Part shown: piece by piece, positions 39,077-44,373 of the stretch
How positions within the stretch are numbered: the stretch's first letter is position 1
How the letters are laid out: every line of letters begins with the position of its first letter
Origin: a bacterium
Lineage (GTDB): Bacteria; UBP6; UBA1177; JAKLFG01
Length of the DNA stretch: 44,982 bases
NCBI GenBank assembly: GCA_022711315.1
Contig: JAKLFG010000016.1
Location: 1 to 44,982 of the forward strand
Direction of reading: 5' to 3'
The notes under the pieces: model-generated
The model's input: the letters and a program-made list of their open reading frames with translations, nothing else
What the model was told of the DNA's origin: nothing
Database searches by the model: none
Translations under genes and position numbers: made by a program

Positions 39077-40372
39077 TTATCTTATTTCTATGGAAGCTCT
39101 CACATATACCTTTCCCTGTTCCGGGAAGGGAAGGATGCCTGTGCCATAGATGTCTGCCGACAAAACATCGAACCGCACTACTCTTTCCAAACAATCGAGG
39201 GTGGTCGTGCCATTTTCCATGATACTCACGGTCAGCGAATAACTGTTCTGCAATAAGAGCAACTCATTGATGCGGAATTCCGCGACGCCGGAAGATAGCG
39301 AACCCTTTTTATCACCTCCGGACACCATATAGTTATTCAGGGAAAATATCCTCTCCCCATACAGGTTCTCGACACCAAAACCGACCCCGCAATTCGATAT
39401 CGGTTTTTTGCTGCTGAAGGCGCAACATATCTTCATCGGCTCTCCTGAAAGGACGGTCCGGGTCCGAAGTCCTTCCTTATTCTCTATCCAGACATCGGTG
39501 ATGATGTGCTCATACCCCCTCTCCCGCGGCATCATGCCCGGCGACACGAGGCCCTCTTCATTTGGAGAACCGGCGTTGCTTAAATAGTCGGCGACCACGG
39601 CCGCTACCGCATCATTCTGCACGATCCTGCCTAATTCTACGCGCAGCCCGCGATCGCAGATGTTTTTGACCGCCGCCATGTTGTGGCTCACAAAGAGCAC
39701 CGTTCTCCCCTCCTTCCGGCTGACATCGCCCATCTTGCCGAGGCATTTCCTCTGGAACTCGGCGTCGCCCACAGTGAGCACCTCGTCCACGACAAGTATC
39801 TCGGGGTCGAGATGGGCCGCCACGGCGAACGCGAGCCGCACGAACATCCCGGACGAATAACGCTTGACCGGAGTATACATGAACCGCTCGACACCGGAGA
39901 AATCAATGATCTCATCCAGTTTCCGATCTATCTCTTTTTTCTTCATCCCGAGGATGGCACCGTTCATGTAGATATTCTCACGGCCGGTAAGTTCAGGATG
40001 AAAACCGGTCCCCACCTCAAGTAAACTACCGATGCGACCTTTTATCTTCACGCATCCCGATGTCGGCGCCGTGACGCGTGACAGTATCTTGAGGAGCGTC
40101 GATTTCCCTGCGCCATTCTTGCCGATGATGCCGAGCACTTCTCCTTGCTTTACCTCGAACGACACATCCTTCAGTGCATGGATGATGCCATTCTCGTCGG
40201 CGAATTGCTCCATTTTTTTGCGGCGGCCGCCATCCACCGGCAGATTGGGGTCATCTTTGCCCCTTCGGCGGGCCCACCACGATTGCAGGTCGCGCTGGAA
40301 GGTACGATGCGAGATGGCACCGAGACTATATTGCTTGGAAAGGCCCTCTACCGCTATCACCACTTTGGACAT
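39077..40372 (-). CDS. wzt: Polysaccharide ABC exporter ATPase with C-terminal glycan-binding domain
   Basis: The 431-residue protein has the Wzt/TagH-type ATPase at residues 1-250: Walker A GKNGAGKSTLLKIL, the segment GTGFHPELTGRENIYMNGAILGM that marks this exporter family, signature YSSGMFVRLAFAVAAHL and Walker B ILVVDEVLTVGD. Residues about 270-431 form the beta-sandwich Wzt-C domain that recognises the finished, often modified, chain end. That implies export of a capped polysaccharide, consistent with the many methyltransferases in the operon. It follows wzm after three bases. Confidence 0.94.
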   Translation of the reverse strand: MSKVVIAVEGLSKQYSLGAISHRTFQRDLQSWWARRRGKDDPNLPVDGGRRKKMEQFADENGIIHALKDVSFEVKQGEVLGIIGKNGAGKSTLLKILSRVTAPTSGCVKIKGRIGSLLEVGTGFHPELTGRENIYMNGAILGMKKKEIDRKLDEIIDFSGVERFMYTPVKRYSSGMFVRLAFAVAAHLDPEILVVDEVLTVGDAEFQRKCLGKMGDVSRKEGRTVLFVSHNMAAVKNICDRGLRVELGRIVQNDAVAAVVADYLSNAGSPNEEGLVSPGMMPRERGYEHIITDVWIENKEGLRTRTVLSGEPMKICCAFSSKKPISNCGVGFGVENLYGERIFSLNNYMVSGGDKKGSLSSGVAEFRINELLLLQNSYSLTVSIMENGTTTLDCLERVVRFDVLSADIYGTGILPFPEQGKVYVRASIEIR

Positions 40373-40375
40373 CGG

Positions 40376-41221
40376 TCACACCGTATCTATAAAGGTTCGT
40401 TCGACTTTGTTGAAAAAGAACAGCCCGGCAACGAGAAGCAGGAGCGTTATGGCAATACCCGTACCAAAAACCGACAACGGCGGCAATCCGGCACCGAAGA
40501 AGATATGTTTGAAAGATTCCATCGCCGGGACAACCGGATTAAGTGTATAGAGTGTCCGCCATTTTTCGGGGACAAGCGAAAAGGGATAGACGATGGGAGA
40601 GCCGTACATCCACAGTTGCACGAGGAACGACAGTCCCACCTGTAGGTCGCGGTAGCGGGTTGTGAAGGCGCTAATGATGAGCCCGACCGCGAACCCGAGC
40701 ACCGCGACATACAGGAGCGTCAGCGGGAACAGGAGGATCGTCCAGTCAAGGGAACTTTTCATACCGATGGAAAGATAAAAAATATAGAGCGAGGCAAACA
40801 GGGCGAACTGTATCGCGAACCGGCCAAGGCCCGCGACCACTTGGGCTATCGGAACGACCAACCGGGGGAAATAGACCTTCGAGAACAGGTGTGCGTTCGA
40901 GGTCAATACCGAAGAGGTCTGGGTAAGGATGCCCGAGAAGTAGTTCCAGACGATAAGACCCCCCATATAGAAAAGTGGCTGAGGGATACCGTCGGTCGGT
41001 ATCTTCGCTATCTTGCCGAAGACCACGAGGAACATGATGGTGGTCATGAGCGGCTGAACGAGAAACCAGACCGGCCCGAGGATGGTCTGTTTGTACTGCG
41101 CGATGAAATCGCGCTTGACGAACAAAGCGATAAGGTCGCGGTACGCAAGCAGTTCTCCGATGTCGACCAGCCGCCGGTCGCGCGTCGGAGTAATGATCGT
41201 TGTCCAATGGTCGTTACTCAA
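40376..41221 (-). CDS. wzm: Polysaccharide ABC exporter permease
   Basis: The protein (281 residues from the chosen start) is an ABC-2 membrane protein of the Wzm/TagG type. LLAYRDLIALFVKRDFIAQYKQTILGPVWFLVQPL is the conserved N-terminal segment, six membrane helices follow, and MYGSPIVYP and LNPVVPAMESFK are family landmarks. TTG 41221 is preferred as start: AGGAGAAGGG lies directly before it. A GTG 51 bases upstream overlaps the predicted -10 box of the operon promoter. It is the first gene of the large minus-strand operon and pairs with wzt. Confidence 0.92.
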   Translation of the reverse strand: MSNDHWTTIITPTRDRRLVDIGELLAYRDLIALFVKRDFIAQYKQTILGPVWFLVQPLMTTIMFLVVFGKIAKIPTDGIPQPLFYMGGLIVWNYFSGILTQTSSVLTSNAHLFSKVYFPRLVVPIAQVVAGLGRFAIQFALFASLYIFYLSIGMKSSLDWTILLFPLTLLYVAVLGFAVGLIISAFTTRYRDLQVGLSFLVQLWMYGSPIVYPFSLVPEKWRTLYTLNPVVPAMESFKHIFFGAGLPPLSVFGTGIAITLLLLVAGLFFFNKVERTFIDTV

Positions 41222-41263
41222 CCCTTCTCCTTTTCCACTCACTCCACTCACAACAGCGCTCCA

Positions 41264-41290
41264 ATTATACACTCGAAAAGAAAAGACACA
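41264..41290 (-). promoter_or_regulatory. Predicted promoter of the polysaccharide operon
   Basis: A perfect TATAAT (41269-41264) on the minus strand with TTGTGT (41290-41285) 15 bases upstream; the spacing is short. It lies just before the TTG start of wzm and after the pilin gene upstream, and would drive the whole operon down to 19.8 kb. Confidence 0.45.
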
Positions 41291-41332: not shown

Positions 41333-41878
41333 TTAGTGCGATAGACCCTGATGATGAAGGTCTTTCGTAGTGTTCATGCAAGCCCCCTCTGTCCAGTCGT
41401 CGGGGACCATAAGAACATCCCTCGGGATGGCGCTACCGATGCCGACACCCAAGACGACACCAGACCCGCAACTAAAGGTCAGATCGTTGTGCGCGTTGAA
41501 TATCCAATACTTGCCATCCACATTTGTATAACTCTTCGTCGCCATCACCGCTTGCGTGATGGGTTCTCCGTTGTTGTATGTCTGGAGGGAGGTGGTCCAC
41601 TGAAGGGTACCGATAGCCGTCGCGTAGTGATCGGTCCGCCCTCCGTCGGGGTCCTCCCAGAAGACGAACTGCGCCTTCGCTATCTCCTTGAGCATCTCGG
41701 GAACCTCGATGGTGCGGGCCTTTTTGGTGTAGTCGGCGTACATCGGGATGGCGGCGACCGCAAGGATGGCGACAATGGATATCGTTATCATGAGTTCAAG
41801 CAGGGTGAACGCCTTAAAAGACAACCGGATCCTCCTACTGTTCCCTTTCATCAAGCAATCATCATTCCGTCGGCTCAT
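41333..41878 (-). CDS. Type IV pilin-like protein (copy 2)
   Basis: The protein has a prepilin leader of 14 or 23 residues ending SFKA, then FTLLELMITISIVAILAVAAIPMYADY. Glu is at +5, but the residue before cleavage is Ala instead of the usual Gly. TKKARTIEVPEMLKEIAKAQFVFWED, an IGTLQWTTS block and the C-terminal VPDDWTEGACM motif follow, all shared with the pilin at 43789. The total is 181 residues from ATG 41878, which lies three bases after the stop of the GT-C gene; ATG 41851 is an alternative. Neither has a strong ribosome-binding site. It may be a minor pilin or an antigenic variant. Confidence 0.88.
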   Translation of the reverse strand: MSRRNDDCLMKGNSRRIRLSFKAFTLLELMITISIVAILAVAAIPMYADYTKKARTIEVPEMLKEIAKAQFVFWEDPDGGRTDHYATAIGTLQWTTSLQTYNNGEPITQAVMATKSYTNVDGKYWIFNAHNDLTFSCGSGVVLGVGIGSAIPRDVLMVPDDWTEGACMNTTKDLHHQGLSH

Positions 41879-41881
41879 CCC

Positions 41882-43777
41882 TTATATCGGGTCAGGAAGC
41901 GCATCGATCCGATCCTCCGTCTCGCGGGCGCGGACCGCCTCGCGACGCCAGTGGTCGACATCAAGCCCCGGAGCCACCGAAACAAGTTGTAAGTGTTCAG
42001 AAAAACGGAGGTTCGCCGCCGGGATATCGAACCGAAGAAGCGTTTTCTGAAGTCGTTCCGATATCGCGGCCCGGCGATCGGGGGGTATCGCCGCGTCGCC
42101 AACCATCCGTTCCCATATCGGGCGCAGTTCGACCCCGATCCCGGCATCCGCAAGCGCATCGGCCCATGACGGGTCATCCGGGAAACGGTCCCGGCGAAAT
42201 TCCTCGCACCGCGTAGCCATCTTTTTGGCGAACCGGGTCGCCACCGCATCAGGAACACTCGCGGCGACGGTGCGGGCCCTCCCGCAATCACCGGCTACGA
42301 GATGAAGCAGGGAGACATGAGCCGAGGCGGAGAGCGAAAGGGCGCTCCGCGCGCCGAATTCACCGTAAAGCAGAAGCGCCGCGCGATGGTCGCCTTTTAC
42401 GATATGATAATTGATGAGATTGCCGTACAGCGACGCGTCGCGGAACCCAGTATCCCACGCCCGCCAGTAATAGCGGAATGCGCGGTCGGGGAAGCCCGCT
42501 TCGAGATAGAGCGCCCCCATGGTATAGAGCCCCCGGAACGATACGGGGCGCCACCGGCTGTCGGCGATGAGCACCGTGTGGATGTCGCGCATCTCCCCTA
42601 CCCGTGCCAGCGCCTTGCCCGCGAACAGGACCGCAACGAGCACGCAGAGCAGGGCGATCGCCATGACGCGCCGCGAGGCCCCCAAGATGGCGGTGGTCGC
42701 ACCGGCCTCGAACGGCGACACGAACTCACCGATGAGGCCGGCTATGCCGACGAGCGGCAGGTAGAGGTAGTGATCGGCCGCTATCTCGTGAAGCGGCACG
42801 ATCTGGAGGACCGGCAGAAGCGTGACGAGAAAAAAAGCCATAAAGAAGGATGCCGGGCGATATCCCTTGCGGAACAGGAGGACCGTGATCGTTATGAACA
42901 GGCCCGCTCCGAGAAGCGAGGCCGCGAATTTCATGTTCACGGAGGTCACCAGCGGATAATTGGCATTGTCGAGAACAAGTTGCAACGGGAAGAAACTCTG
43001 TTTCAGGTAGTAGGTGAAAAGCGTCGGCGCCGTCAGGTAATGGGTCAGCAGGTCGCCGCCGTGAAAGGAGGGGCGCAGGCCGTGAAGGAACGCGCTACCA
43101 CCGCCCGTTATCGCCAACAGTCCGAGGATCCCGGTCAGCGCTACCGCGGCCACGCTCCAACGCAAGAAGCGCGCTCCGGAGCACTTTTCGTACTGCCACA
43201 GGTAGATCAACGCCACGAGCGGCAACATCGCCGCCATCTCCTTGGCCAAAAAACTGAACAGGCCACAGACCGCAGCGCCCAGCAGGAACAGCGGTCGCCG
43301 TCGCTCCATCGCCACCACGAGAAACAACAGGGCCACCACGAAGAAAAGAGAGGTCAGGATGTCGCGACGCCCCGATATGTAGGCGACCGCTTCGGTATTC
43401 ACCGGATGAAGCGCATAGAAGGACAGTGCGACCAGCGCCGCAAAGGGCGAAGAGGAAAGTCGACGGAACAACATCCAGAGCACGGAAAGCATGCACAGGT
43501 GATAGAGGATGTTCATCGCCCGGAACCCGGCCGGGTTTTTGCCCCAAAGCAGATGGTCGAGTACGAAGGAAACGGTCCGTAGGGGGCGATAGGCGTGCAA
43601 AAGCGCGGGGACCGCAGGGGTCGTCACCAAATCGTTCTCTACGGTGAGTGCCCGATCGTCAAAGATGAAATCGTTGCGCAACGAGGGAAGATAAAGAAGG
43701 ATCGTGACAAAAAAAACAAATCCAAGAACTAAAAAAAGGGGGAGGCGCAAGCGCCCCCCCCCAGCAGAAAGGAACAT
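41882..43777 (-). CDS. TMTC/PMT-like GT-C membrane glycosyltransferase with TPR-like tail
   Basis: The 631-residue protein has many membrane helices in residues 1-400 and a soluble helical C-terminal part. The first loop holds LPSLRNDFIFDDRALTVEND, with the Asp pair expected of GT-C catalysts. RPLRTVSFVLDHLLWG, HPVNTEAVAYISGRRDIL, FLAKEMAAMLPLVAL and HEIAADHYLYLP follow, the pattern of TMTC-type O-mannosyltransferases. C-terminal helices (about 420-520, ALYLEAGFPDRAFRYYWRAWD) look TPR-like. Such enzymes use lipid-linked sugars and act outside the cytoplasm. It sits between two pilin genes, so a role in pilin O-glycosylation is inferred. Codons 6-8 are nine consecutive G. Confidence 0.83.
   Translation of the reverse strand: MFLSAGGGRLRLPLFLVLGFVFFVTILLYLPSLRNDFIFDDRALTVENDLVTTPAVPALLHAYRPLRTVSFVLDHLLWGKNPAGFRAMNILYHLCMLSVLWMLFRRLSSSPFAALVALSFYALHPVNTEAVAYISGRRDILTSLFFVVALLFLVVAMERRRPLFLLGAAVCGLFSFLAKEMAAMLPLVALIYLWQYEKCSGARFLRWSVAAVALTGILGLLAITGGGSAFLHGLRPSFHGGDLLTHYLTAPTLFTYYLKQSFFPLQLVLDNANYPLVTSVNMKFAASLLGAGLFITITVLLFRKGYRPASFFMAFFLVTLLPVLQIVPLHEIAADHYLYLPLVGIAGLIGEFVSPFEAGATTAILGASRRVMAIALLCVLVAVLFAGKALARVGEMRDIHTVLIADSRWRPVSFRGLYTMGALYLEAGFPDRAFRYYWRAWDTGFRDASLYGNLINYHIVKGDHRAALLLYGEFGARSALSLSASAHVSLLHLVAGDCGRARTVAASVPDAVATRFAKKMATRCEEFRRDRFPDDPSWADALADAGIGVELRPIWERMVGDAAIPPDRRAAISERLQKTLLRFDIPAANLRFSEHLQLVSVAPGLDVDHWRREAVRARETEDRIDALPDPI
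43731..43762 (-). terminator. Strong intrinsic terminator inside the start of the GT-C gene
   Basis: On the minus strand GGGGGGGGCGC and GCGCCTCCCCC pair over ten or eleven positions (one G-T), followed by seven T. It begins 26 bases after the pilin stop, so it is the natural end of the pilin transcript. It lies within codons 6-16 of the next gene, which therefore depends on read-through. Confidence 0.85.
43754..43762 (-). repeat. Nine-G homopolymer tract in the GT-C coding start
   Basis: Nine C on the plus strand, reading GGG GGG GGG as codons 6-8 of the GT-C gene. Homopolymer tracts of this length slip during replication, and a one-base change would shift the frame right after the start codon. 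The tract is also part of the terminator stem. Confidence 0.75.
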
Positions 43778-43788
43778 TCGACGGGAAA

Positions 43789-44286
43789 TTAGTAGTGGAT
43801 CAGGCTCAGGCTGTTCCCCATGCACGCGCCATGCACCCAATCATTGGGGACCTGCGCGGAATTGATCGGGAAGCCGGCGCCGATACTGGCGGCCACGGTG
43901 ATGTCGGATGTTGAACCACAACCGCCACCAACGGCATTCTCGCCAGCATTGCCCGACGAATACGCAAAGAACTTACCGCAGGCGTAGGCATAGGTCGCAC
44001 TTGAGATAGTGTCACCCGCCGAACAGTTCGTCGGCGCACTGCCGCTGGTGTTCAGGTTGGTCTTCCAACCGATCGAACCGATGTTGTCAGCCCAGCCACC
44101 GTTACCGCCCTGCGGGTCTTCACGGAAGGCGATCTGCTGTTTCACGATCTCTTTGAGCGAGCCGGGCACCTCGGAGGTACGCGCCTTCTTGGTGTAGTCG
44201 TTGTACATCGGGATGGCGACGGCCGCGAGAATGCCGATGATCGCGATAACGATCATGAGTTCGATGAGCGTAAAGCCTTTCTTCAT
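43789..44286 (-). CDS. pilA: Type IV major pilin
   Basis: The 165-residue prepilin has a classic four-residue leader MKKG and the mature start [27 protein letters not shown], with Glu at +5. [26 protein letters not shown], the IGSIGWKTN block, and a C-terminal [11 protein letters not shown] motif follow. Four Cys could form disulfides in the globular head. GGAGAG precedes the ATG, a sigma-54 promoter lies upstream (44358-44373), and a strong terminator follows, all as expected of a major, highly expressed pilin. The head is rich in Ser, Thr, Asn and Gly, possible glycan acceptor sites. The pilA name is by function, not by close identity to a named gene. Confidence 0.92.
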
Positions 44287-44357: not shown

Positions 44358-44373
44358 AGCAACGAGCGTGCCA
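44358..44373 (-). promoter_or_regulatory. Predicted sigma-54 promoter of the major pilin
   Basis: On the minus strand TGGCAC (44373-44368), five bases, then TTGCT (44362-44358). The GG and GC doublets are ten bases apart, matching the -24/-12 consensus TGGCAC-N5-TTGCW. Major pilin genes are commonly transcribed by sigma-54 with the PilR activator. Confidence 0.8.

What the first reader, a model, noticed from the sequence alone, without database searches (positions are those of the whole stretch)
43731..43777. Nine-G tract and pilin terminator overlap inside the first codons of a pilin-linked GT-C enzyme
The sequence shows a (G)9 run at codons 6-8 of the GT-C gene, and the same run is the left arm of a strong T-tailed hairpin that ends the pilin transcript. 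Poly-G slippage is an established way to switch surface glycosyltransferases on and off (for example pglA in Neisseria pilin glycosylation). Here one element could set both reading frame and read-through level. Change of tract length would leave the stem largely intact but turn the enzyme off. This combination of contingency tract and attenuator is not one I know to be described.
Basis: partly seen in the sequence, partly recalled or inferred. Interest (0 to 1): 0.78.

Follow-up and report, generated by a model that had tools for sequence, protein, structure and literature searches.

The report
Pilin terminator inside next gene's start
In an uncultured bacterium, the predicted stop signal that ends the pilus-protein message is written inside the first codons of the neighbouring gene, a likely sugar-transfer enzyme, probably so that much less enzyme than pilin is made; its run of nine Gs is one arm of that signal and shows no sign of being an on/off switch.

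Summary
In detail: (G)9 at codons 6-8, an 11-bp hairpin and a T7 run lie 26 nt after the pilin stop codon, inside the GT-C reading frame. Under strict settings it is the only terminator in the 45-kb window. The G run alone is not more than chance. It resembles the Pseudomonas pilA-terminator-accessory cassette. The contingency-tract half is not supported: G9 is identical in the one close relative, absent in the second genus and in a 78%-identical homologue, and not enriched in the genome. The unexpected part is recurrence. Three other gene pairs in the sampled half of this genome carry the upstream gene's terminator inside signal-peptide or membrane-anchor codons of the next gene. One does so in 24 of 24 homologues across three families of the order, with compensatory stem changes. 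Best reading: a fixed-ratio operon attenuator that doubles as codons of a secretory N-terminus, a known kind in an unusual, conserved layout.

The parts
44359..44373 (-). sigma-54-type promoter motif TGGCAC-N5-TTGC, 87 nt upstream of the pilin ATG
   Evidence: pattern match here and 75-90 nt upstream of the pilin ATG in 7 of 7 loci scanned; promoter function not tested; consensus recalled
43789..44286 (-). pilin gene 1 (165 aa, N-terminal methylation motif)
   Evidence: PF07963 5e-9; TIGR02532; matches in 24 of 28 genomes of the phylum, many by the N-terminal segment only
43737..43762 (-). terminator hairpin, 11 bp, 4-nt loop, coding for GT-C residues 6-14
   Evidence: in the GT-C frame in G000, G001, G002, G004
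43731..43737 (-). T7 run of the terminator; codes for the first residues of predicted transmembrane helix 1
   Evidence: sequence; helix from residue 14 in the model
43754..43762 (-). (G)9 run, 5' arm of the hairpin, codons 6-8
   Evidence: 9 G also in G001; absent in G002, G004 and P0003
41882..43777 (-). GT-C membrane glycosyltransferase gene (631 aa), ATG 11 nt after the pilin stop, no Shine-Dalgarno-like sequence before it (by eye)
43748..43750 (-). in-frame TTG (codon 10) in the hairpin: the only other start after ATG1 and before helix 1
   Evidence: codon 10 is Ser in P0002 and P0003, so this start is not conserved
43676..43738 (-). codons of predicted transmembrane helix 1 (residues 14-34)
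   Evidence: AlphaFold2 model
41333..41878 (-). second pilin-like gene, 3 nt after the GT-C stop
   Evidence: PF07963 7e-6
40376..41272 (-). ABC-2 exporter permease (Wzm-like) downstream in the same direction
   Evidence: PF01061, NF050109 below cut-off
39077..40372 (-). ABC exporter ATPase with Wzt C-terminal domain
   Evidence: PF00005, PF14524

Best explanation
The element is a predicted intrinsic terminator of the pilin gene whose DNA is also codons 6-16 of the next gene, and it likely ends most pilin transcripts while a minority read through, so that the glycosyltransferase and the genes behind it would be made in much smaller amounts than the pilin. Transcription would start at a sigma-54-type promoter upstream of the pilin (motif shown, function inferred). 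The hairpin starts 26 nt after the pilin stop codon (shown), close to the distance at which a ribosome standing on the stop codon no longer blocks folding (inferred from E. coli measurements in PMC4824070). The GT-C ATG lies in that gap, 11 nt after the pilin stop and without a Shine-Dalgarno-like sequence (shown), so its translation is probably by re-initiation after the pilin (inferred). The overlap costs the protein little: the stem codes for a disordered tail and the T run for Leu/Phe residues that begin transmembrane helix 1 (model). The (G)9 run is a by-product of the stem: its partner arm tolerates G-U pairs, and relatives build a hairpin there without it.
For: Hairpin plus T run in the GT-C frame after an orthologous pilin in 4 of 4 family genomes that hold the gene, with different stems in the two genera. 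The longest identical run between G000 and G001 in about 4 kb, 137 nt at 43848-43712, covers it, although the GT-C CDS is 93.0% identical (1764 of 1896). 13 of 13 f2 main-pilin loci in view have a terminator 25-31 nt after the pilin stop; 10 of the 13 are not covered by any open frame of 100 codons or more. In G022 the GT-C gene follows further downstream. Stop-to-hairpin gap 22-29 nt at the 19 loci. Same layout at three other gene pairs of G000: in 24 of 24 homologues, 5 of 5 family genomes, and 2 of 4, with compensatory changes at the first two. Precedents: a terminator in the first 100 bp of a CDS works in E. coli (PMC4824070); the terminator after pilA sets accessory-gene stoichiometry (PMC11841053).
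Against: No transcript or protein data exist; termination and read-through are predicted. In the sister genus the start is ambiguous: a TTG is the only start between pilin stop and hairpin, and the source's gene call for G004 (P0006) starts at the TTG after the T run. f2 GT-C genes (14 of 14 looked at) have no such hairpin, so the enzyme does not need it. A separate GT-C promoter is not excluded, although none matched the sigma-70 scan. Acceptor and sugar are unknown.
Confidence: 0.75

Rival explanations
1. The (G)9 run is a contingency tract: slippage shifts the GT-C frame and switches the enzyme on and off, while the hairpin stays and keeps terminating.
For: G8 and G10 give 15- and 39-codon products and the hairpin stays stable. 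The tract is at the 5' end of a likely surface-glycan gene. Both genomes of the genus keep nine G.
Against: No length difference between the two genomes that have it. Absent in the sister genus and impossible in P0003, which has W-G-R. G9 not enriched: 13 runs in 2.67 Mb, where the window's shuffle rate would give about 32. No frame-shifted homologue among the window's own cluster and the three others at 73-79% identity; all are 631 aa with the start at the same place, but that search admits only proteins of 0.55-1.75 times the query's length.
Confidence: 0.07
2. Translation of GT-C starts downstream of the hairpin arm (TTG codon 10, or the TTG after the T run in the sister genus), so the terminator is an ordinary intergenic one and does not code.
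For: No Shine-Dalgarno-like sequence before ATG1. The source's call for G004 starts after the T run (P0006).
Against: In the window's genus-level cluster P0002-P0004 keep M1 at the same distance while codon 10 is not a start codon in P0002 or P0003. The first start after the T run is codon 33, which would delete helix 1. At the L109-type locus most homologues have an ATG between upstream stop and hairpin.
Confidence: 0.12
3. The hairpin is a regulated attenuator rather than a fixed-ratio valve: a ribosome re-initiating at the GT-C ATG, 15 nt before the hairpin, blocks its folding and allows read-through, so the ratio follows translation conditions.
For: Start codon between stop and hairpin, 1-11 nt after the stop, at all four loci of G000. 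Ribosome-controlled attenuators exist (PMC4191407 passages).
Against: In E. coli a terminator 30 bp after a start codon lost only about 10% of its efficiency to translation (PMC4824070 section 12). No antiterminator structure in the short folds; longer ones were not searched.
Confidence: 0.15
4. The hairpin stabilises the pilin mRNA 3' end after processing and has no role in termination.
For: Stable stems can do this (general knowledge); not tested.
Against: A T run directly after the stem is kept at the GT-C locus in both genera and a T-rich run in the 24 homologues of the L109 gene.
Confidence: 0.05

Closest known systems
Pseudomonas aeruginosa pilin-accessory cassettes (pilA - Rho-independent terminator - tfpO/tfpW/tfpY)
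   Same: Pilin gene, terminator, accessory gene (glycosyltransferases TfpO, TfpW) downstream; terminator proposed to attenuate the accessory gene and supported for tfpY by T-tract mutations (PMC11841053 passages).
   Different: There the terminator is described as lying between the genes; here it is inside the enzyme's first codons. The enzyme is a PMT_2-like GT-C, with no sequence link to Tfp proteins shown; a second pilin and a Wzm/Wzt-like exporter follow.
Rho-independent terminators placed near stop codons or in the first 100 bp of coding regions (E. coli tR2 constructs)
   Same: Function at these positions and the stop-to-hairpin distance rule (PMC4824070 abstract, passages, sections 12 and 14).
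   Different: Engineered constructs; here natural, conserved, and shared with signal-peptide or anchor codons.
B. subtilis bmrB ribosome-mediated attenuator
   Same: Intrinsic terminator inside a translated ORF controls downstream genes (PMC4191407 passages).
   Different: bmrB is a leader peptide gene with antiterminator forms; here the ORF is the enzyme itself and no antiterminator was seen.
Poly-G contingency loci
   Same: G run at the 5' end of a likely surface-glycan gene.
   Different: No length variation seen and no conservation of the tract; the G run is a stem arm.

Membership tests
pilin-accessory cassette with attenuating terminator | pilin gene with prepilin N-terminus | tested here: met
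   PF07963, TIGR02532
pilin-accessory cassette with attenuating terminator | co-directional accessory gene directly downstream | tested here: met
   11 nt from pilin stop to GT-C ATG; same neighbours in G001, G002, G004
pilin-accessory cassette with attenuating terminator | Rho-independent terminator after the pilin gene | tested here: met
   sequence prediction only
pilin-accessory cassette with attenuating terminator | measured read-through that sets accessory level | not testable with these tools
   no RNA or protein data
pilin-accessory cassette with attenuating terminator | accessory protein modifies the pilin | not testable with these tools
   GT-C fold only
GT-C glycosyltransferase superfamily | GT-C membrane fold | tested here: met
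GT-C glycosyltransferase superfamily | acidic motif in the first external loop | tested here: met
   D40 D41 invariant in 44 sequences; loop position from the model, role recalled, not tested
TfpO, TfpW or other named pilin glycosyltransferase | sequence membership | tested here: inconclusive
   no NCBIfam family matched at E <= 0.001; no direct comparison made
poly-G contingency locus | tract length differs between relatives or reads | tested here: not met
   9 G in 2 of 2 genomes that have it; reads not available
poly-G contingency locus | tract retained in orthologues | tested here: not met
   absent in G002, G004, P0003 and P0005; P0002 and P0004 undecided, no DNA
poly-G contingency locus | on/off frame states seen | tested here: not met
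   frame open in G000, G001, G002, G004; 631 aa in P0001-P0004
ribosome-mediated attenuator | alternative antiterminator structure or translation-dependent read-through | tested here: inconclusive
   no competing structure in the short fold; longer alternatives not searched

The most novel reading that the evidence does not exclude
This bacterial order has a recurring class of operon valves in which the upstream gene's intrinsic terminator is written into the signal-peptide or first-helix codons of the next, translationally coupled gene. The G/C arms code for the basic or glycine tail, the T run codes for the Phe/Leu start of the hydrophobic segment, and re-initiation at the start codon in the gap of roughly 20-30 nt tunes read-through, giving secreted and membrane partners a built-in low ratio to the gene before them. 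The pilin/GT-C pair is one member.
Probability: 0.3. Interest if true: 0.68.

Novelty: new variant of a known kind. Interest (0 to 1): 0.55.

Why it matters
Terminators are usually sought in intergenic gaps, and operons are split where one is found (general knowledge). Here conserved terminators sit inside the next gene's coding start, so ordinary annotation could move the start codon or miss the operon; a source's own gene call for the sister genome (P0006) starts after the T run. The layout shows that a terminator's T run can serve as the hydrophobic start of a secreted or membrane protein, which would be a simple way to encode a strong-to-weak expression ratio in a compact genome. It extends the Pseudomonas pilin-cassette principle to an uncultured lineage, and it offers a 24-genome natural series in which read-through could be measured against stem and T-run changes.

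Tried and rejected
Contingency tract: rejected as the leading reading. G001 has another nine-G run (C110:8599); the matching window stretch is divergent and lacks it. That says nothing about slippage.

Start at TTG codon 10 with the G run as a Shine-Dalgarno mimic: considered; rejected because codon 10 is not conserved.

Back-translation of N-termini to see whether homologues could encode the hairpin: P0001-P0005 and P0009 could, P0010 and an f2 protein could not, but 52 of 60 residue-shuffled peptides also could, so the test is uninformative.

Weaker overlap calls L167 and L189 (7-bp stems) and L163 are not counted as members. In 500 kb of G004 the same script called 0 overlaps among 25, although that sample holds the GT-C hairpin; so the script misses cases and its counts are rough. 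Terminator-like hairpins inside coding frames without a gene end upstream also occur (12 of 50 in G000, 8 of 25 in G004), so single cases without conservation prove little. No rate from an unrelated genome was measured.

Rule of the 22-29-nt gap: it holds at the 19 loci, but across all 24 homologues of the L109 gene the gap is 19-36 nt, 20 of 24 within 22-29, and the 13 f2 pilin loci give 25-31. Three f2 pilin hairpins (L077, L086, L096) lie in open frames of 157, 329 and 297 codons that I did not follow up.

Rfam gave no match in the window at gathering scores. No named pilin glycosyltransferase family was matched; that is absence of a match only.

Literature searches aimed at terminators overlapping the next gene's start or signal-peptide codons listed no paper whose title or abstract describes this layout; of their hits I opened passages of PMC4191407 and parts of PMC4824070 only. 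The library is open-access PMC, so this is not proof that none is in print.

Full report
WHAT IS THERE. On the minus strand the window reads: end of a TilS-like gene; a sigma-54-type promoter motif TGGCACGCTCGTTGC (44373-44359); a 165-aa type IV pilin gene (44286-43789); 11 nt; and a 631-aa GT-C gene starting at ATG 43777. Codons 6-8 of the GT-C gene are nine G. They are the 5' arm of an 11-bp hairpin (43762-43737) followed by seven T (43737-43731). The fold is -24.7 kcal/mol, z -2.56. A second pilin-like gene begins 3 nt after the GT-C stop, then come Wzm/Wzt-like exporter genes; glycosyltransferase, sugar-modifying and methyltransferase genes lie further on.

IS IT MORE THAN CHANCE. As a terminator, yes: with stem >=8, >=6 G-C pairs and >=6 T in 8 it is the only hit on either strand of 44,982 bases; 20 shuffles gave a mean of 0.1. 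As a G run, no: 40.5% of 200 shuffles of the window carry a run of nine or more, and 8-G matches are below expectation (2 against 2.82). The genome has 13 distinct runs of nine or more G (30 overlapping matches); the window's shuffle rate scaled to the genome would give about 32.

CLOSE RELATIVES. G001, the one other genome held of the genus, has the same nine G. The GT-C CDS is 1764/1896 identical and the pilin 479/498, but the longest identical run in about 4 kb is 137 nt at 43848-43712, spanning the pilin 3' end, the gap, the hairpin and the T run. The first changed GT-C codon is 23. In the sister genus (G002, G004) an orthologous pilin is followed, 24 nt after its stop, by GGGGAAG-GYAA-CTTCCCC-T9, again in the GT-C frame (coding GK[VA]TSPFFLLL), without a long G run. 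So a hairpin is kept and the tract is not. Metagenome homologues P0002-P0004 (73-79% identical) are all 631 aa with M1 at the same place; P0003 has W-G-R where the window has G-G-G, which cannot be nine G; P0002 and P0004 keep G-G-G and are undecided, as I do not have their DNA. No homologue with a shifted frame appeared, though the search only admits proteins of 0.55-1.75 times the query's length.

WIDER RELATIVES. 18 of 28 genomes of the phylum have the GT-C gene: four in the window's family and 14 in family f2. In f2, 14 of 14 lack the hairpin at the gene start, and where both genes were found the pilin lies on another contig than GT-C, except in G022. The pilin's own terminator is older than the overlap with GT-C: 13 of 13 f2 main-pilin loci in view have a terminator 25-31 nt after the pilin stop (L088 reads N there). 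Ten of the 13 hairpins are not inside any open frame of 100 codons or more; three are (L077, L086, L096), not followed up. G022 shows TilS - pilin - terminator - gap - GT-C, which looks like the intergenic version of the window's order. The likely history (inferred) is loss of the gap, so that the GT-C start came to lie between pilin stop and terminator.

WHERE TRANSLATION STARTS. In the window's genus only ATG1 and TTG10 lie between the pilin stop and helix 1. M1 is kept in P0001-P0004 and codon 10 is not. The model (mean pLDDT 88.4) has residues 1-10 disordered and helix 1 at 14-34, so the stem codes for a loose tail and the T run for the start of the helix. In the sister genus the start is uncertain: a TTG lies between pilin stop and hairpin, and a source's gene call (P0006) begins at the TTG after the T run. 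There is no Shine-Dalgarno-like sequence before ATG1 (by eye); with a gap of 11 nt, re-initiation after the pilin is the likely route.

RECURRENCE. In 1,274,206 bases of G000 (window plus stretches, about 48% of the assembly) there are 19 strong terminators (stem >=9, >=6 G-C pairs; 5 in the same sequence read backwards). Eleven follow the end of a frame of at least 100 codons (one, L163, doubtful) and L198 follows an 82-codon frame. Four run into the first codons of the next gene: the window, L109 (G000:C78), L140 (C22) and L198 (C43). All four next genes begin with what looks like a signal peptide, lipoprotein signal or membrane anchor (read by eye from the sequences).

The L109 pair is the strongest case. 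The next gene (no Pfam or NCBIfam family at E <= 0.001) has homologues in 24 of 28 genomes, not in G001. In 24 of 24, the upstream gene ends with a matching tail (LLEELK or close) 4-25 nt before the start codon used, and a hairpin plus T-rich run lies in the first codons (typically M..FLKRGALLPLFF), with 13 distinct arm pairs and compensatory changes such as A-T to C-G (G003) and A-T to G-C (G019) (arms compared by eye). In 20 of 24 the hairpin starts 15-19 nt after the start used; in G014 and G015 it starts at 20 and 22; in G003 and G006 the start chosen puts it at 2, while an upstream start would put it at 23 and 14. These span families f1, f2 and f3.

The L198 gene (ApbE-like, PF02424) has it in 5 of 5 f1 genomes (in G004 with an imperfect stem) and in 0 of the 3 f2/f3 loci looked at. 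The L140 hairpin overlaps in G000 and G001, but in G002 and G004 it lies before the next ATG.

MECHANISM. The gap between upstream stop codon and hairpin is 22-29 nt at the 19 loci; over all 24 homologues of the L109 gene it is 19-36, 20 of 24 within 22-29, and over the 13 f2 pilin loci 25-31. In E. coli, termination is suppressed when the hairpin is close to the stop codon and reaches its maximum beyond about 27 nt; a terminator 30 bp after a start codon kept most of its efficiency, translation of that ORF costing about 10% (PMC4824070: abstract, passages, sections 12 and 14). So a hairpin here should terminate although it lies in a coding start. The same paper notes that transcripts ending inside an ORF are non-stop messages; weak initiation without a Shine-Dalgarno sequence would limit that cost (inference). 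Read-through would set a low ratio of GT-C, second pilin and exporter to pilin. In P. aeruginosa a terminator after the pilin gene is a common feature of the pilin-accessory cassettes, including those with glycosyltransferases TfpO and TfpW, and T-tract mutations raised TfpY (PMC11841053 passages).

VERDICT. Terminator/attenuator: supported by conservation. Contingency tract: not supported. New: the overlap of terminator and secretory start codons is a conserved, recurring layout in this order. Limits: the genomes are fragmented assemblies and the named ones are metagenome-assembled; homopolymers may be collapsed in consensus; there are no reads, RNA or protein data; gene ends in the sampled stretches come from open frames and a simple codon score, not from a gene finder; no base rate from unrelated genomes was measured.

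Noticed in passing
G000:C78:4421-5269 (L109, L243) and 23 homologues L244-L266: Likely secreted protein of unknown family whose signal-peptide codons carry the upstream gene's terminator in 24 of 24 homologues of three families, with compensatory stem changes.
   Followed up: partly
L198:16790-18346 (G000:C43): ApbE-like protein with a terminator hairpin in its first codons in 5 of 5 genomes of the family, and stem changes between genera.
   Followed up: partly
L140:14708-14730 (G000:C22): Terminator inside the signal codons of a putative lipoprotein in the window's genus but before the next ATG in the sister genus, showing how the overlap may arise or be lost.
   Followed up: partly
window 44359-44373: sigma-54-type motif TGGCAC-N5-TTGC upstream of the pilin, at 75-90 nt from the pilin ATG in 7 of 7 loci of the order scanned.
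   Followed up: partly
f2 pilin loci L077, L086, L096: The pilin terminator lies near the opening of frames of 157, 329 and 297 codons; these could be further overlaps or chance frames.
   Followed up: no
f2 pilin loci L078, L081, L083, L085, L086: A second pilin with a different N-terminus lies upstream; its 3' end is followed by a TGGCAC..TTGC motif and the main pilin, with no terminator visible between.
   Followed up: no
window 41333-41878: Second pilin-like gene starting 3 nt after the GT-C stop; the G001 match is reported with one in-frame TAG, so its start or end differs there.
   Followed up: no
window about 22-39 kb, minus strand: Glycan cluster: glycosyltransferases, GDP-mannose-dehydratase-like enzyme, FkbM methyltransferase, asparagine-synthase-like protein, Wzm/Wzt-like exporter.
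   Followed up: no
window 43709-43716: T8 run just downstream of the terminator is interrupted by C in G001; this homopolymer is not conserved.
   Followed up: no
G000:C78:45882-45898, G000:C41:26174-26188, G002:C147:24055-24104: G runs of 17, 15 and 50 bases; the C41 run is 28 bases from a contig end (length 26216), so assembly artefact is possible.
   Followed up: no
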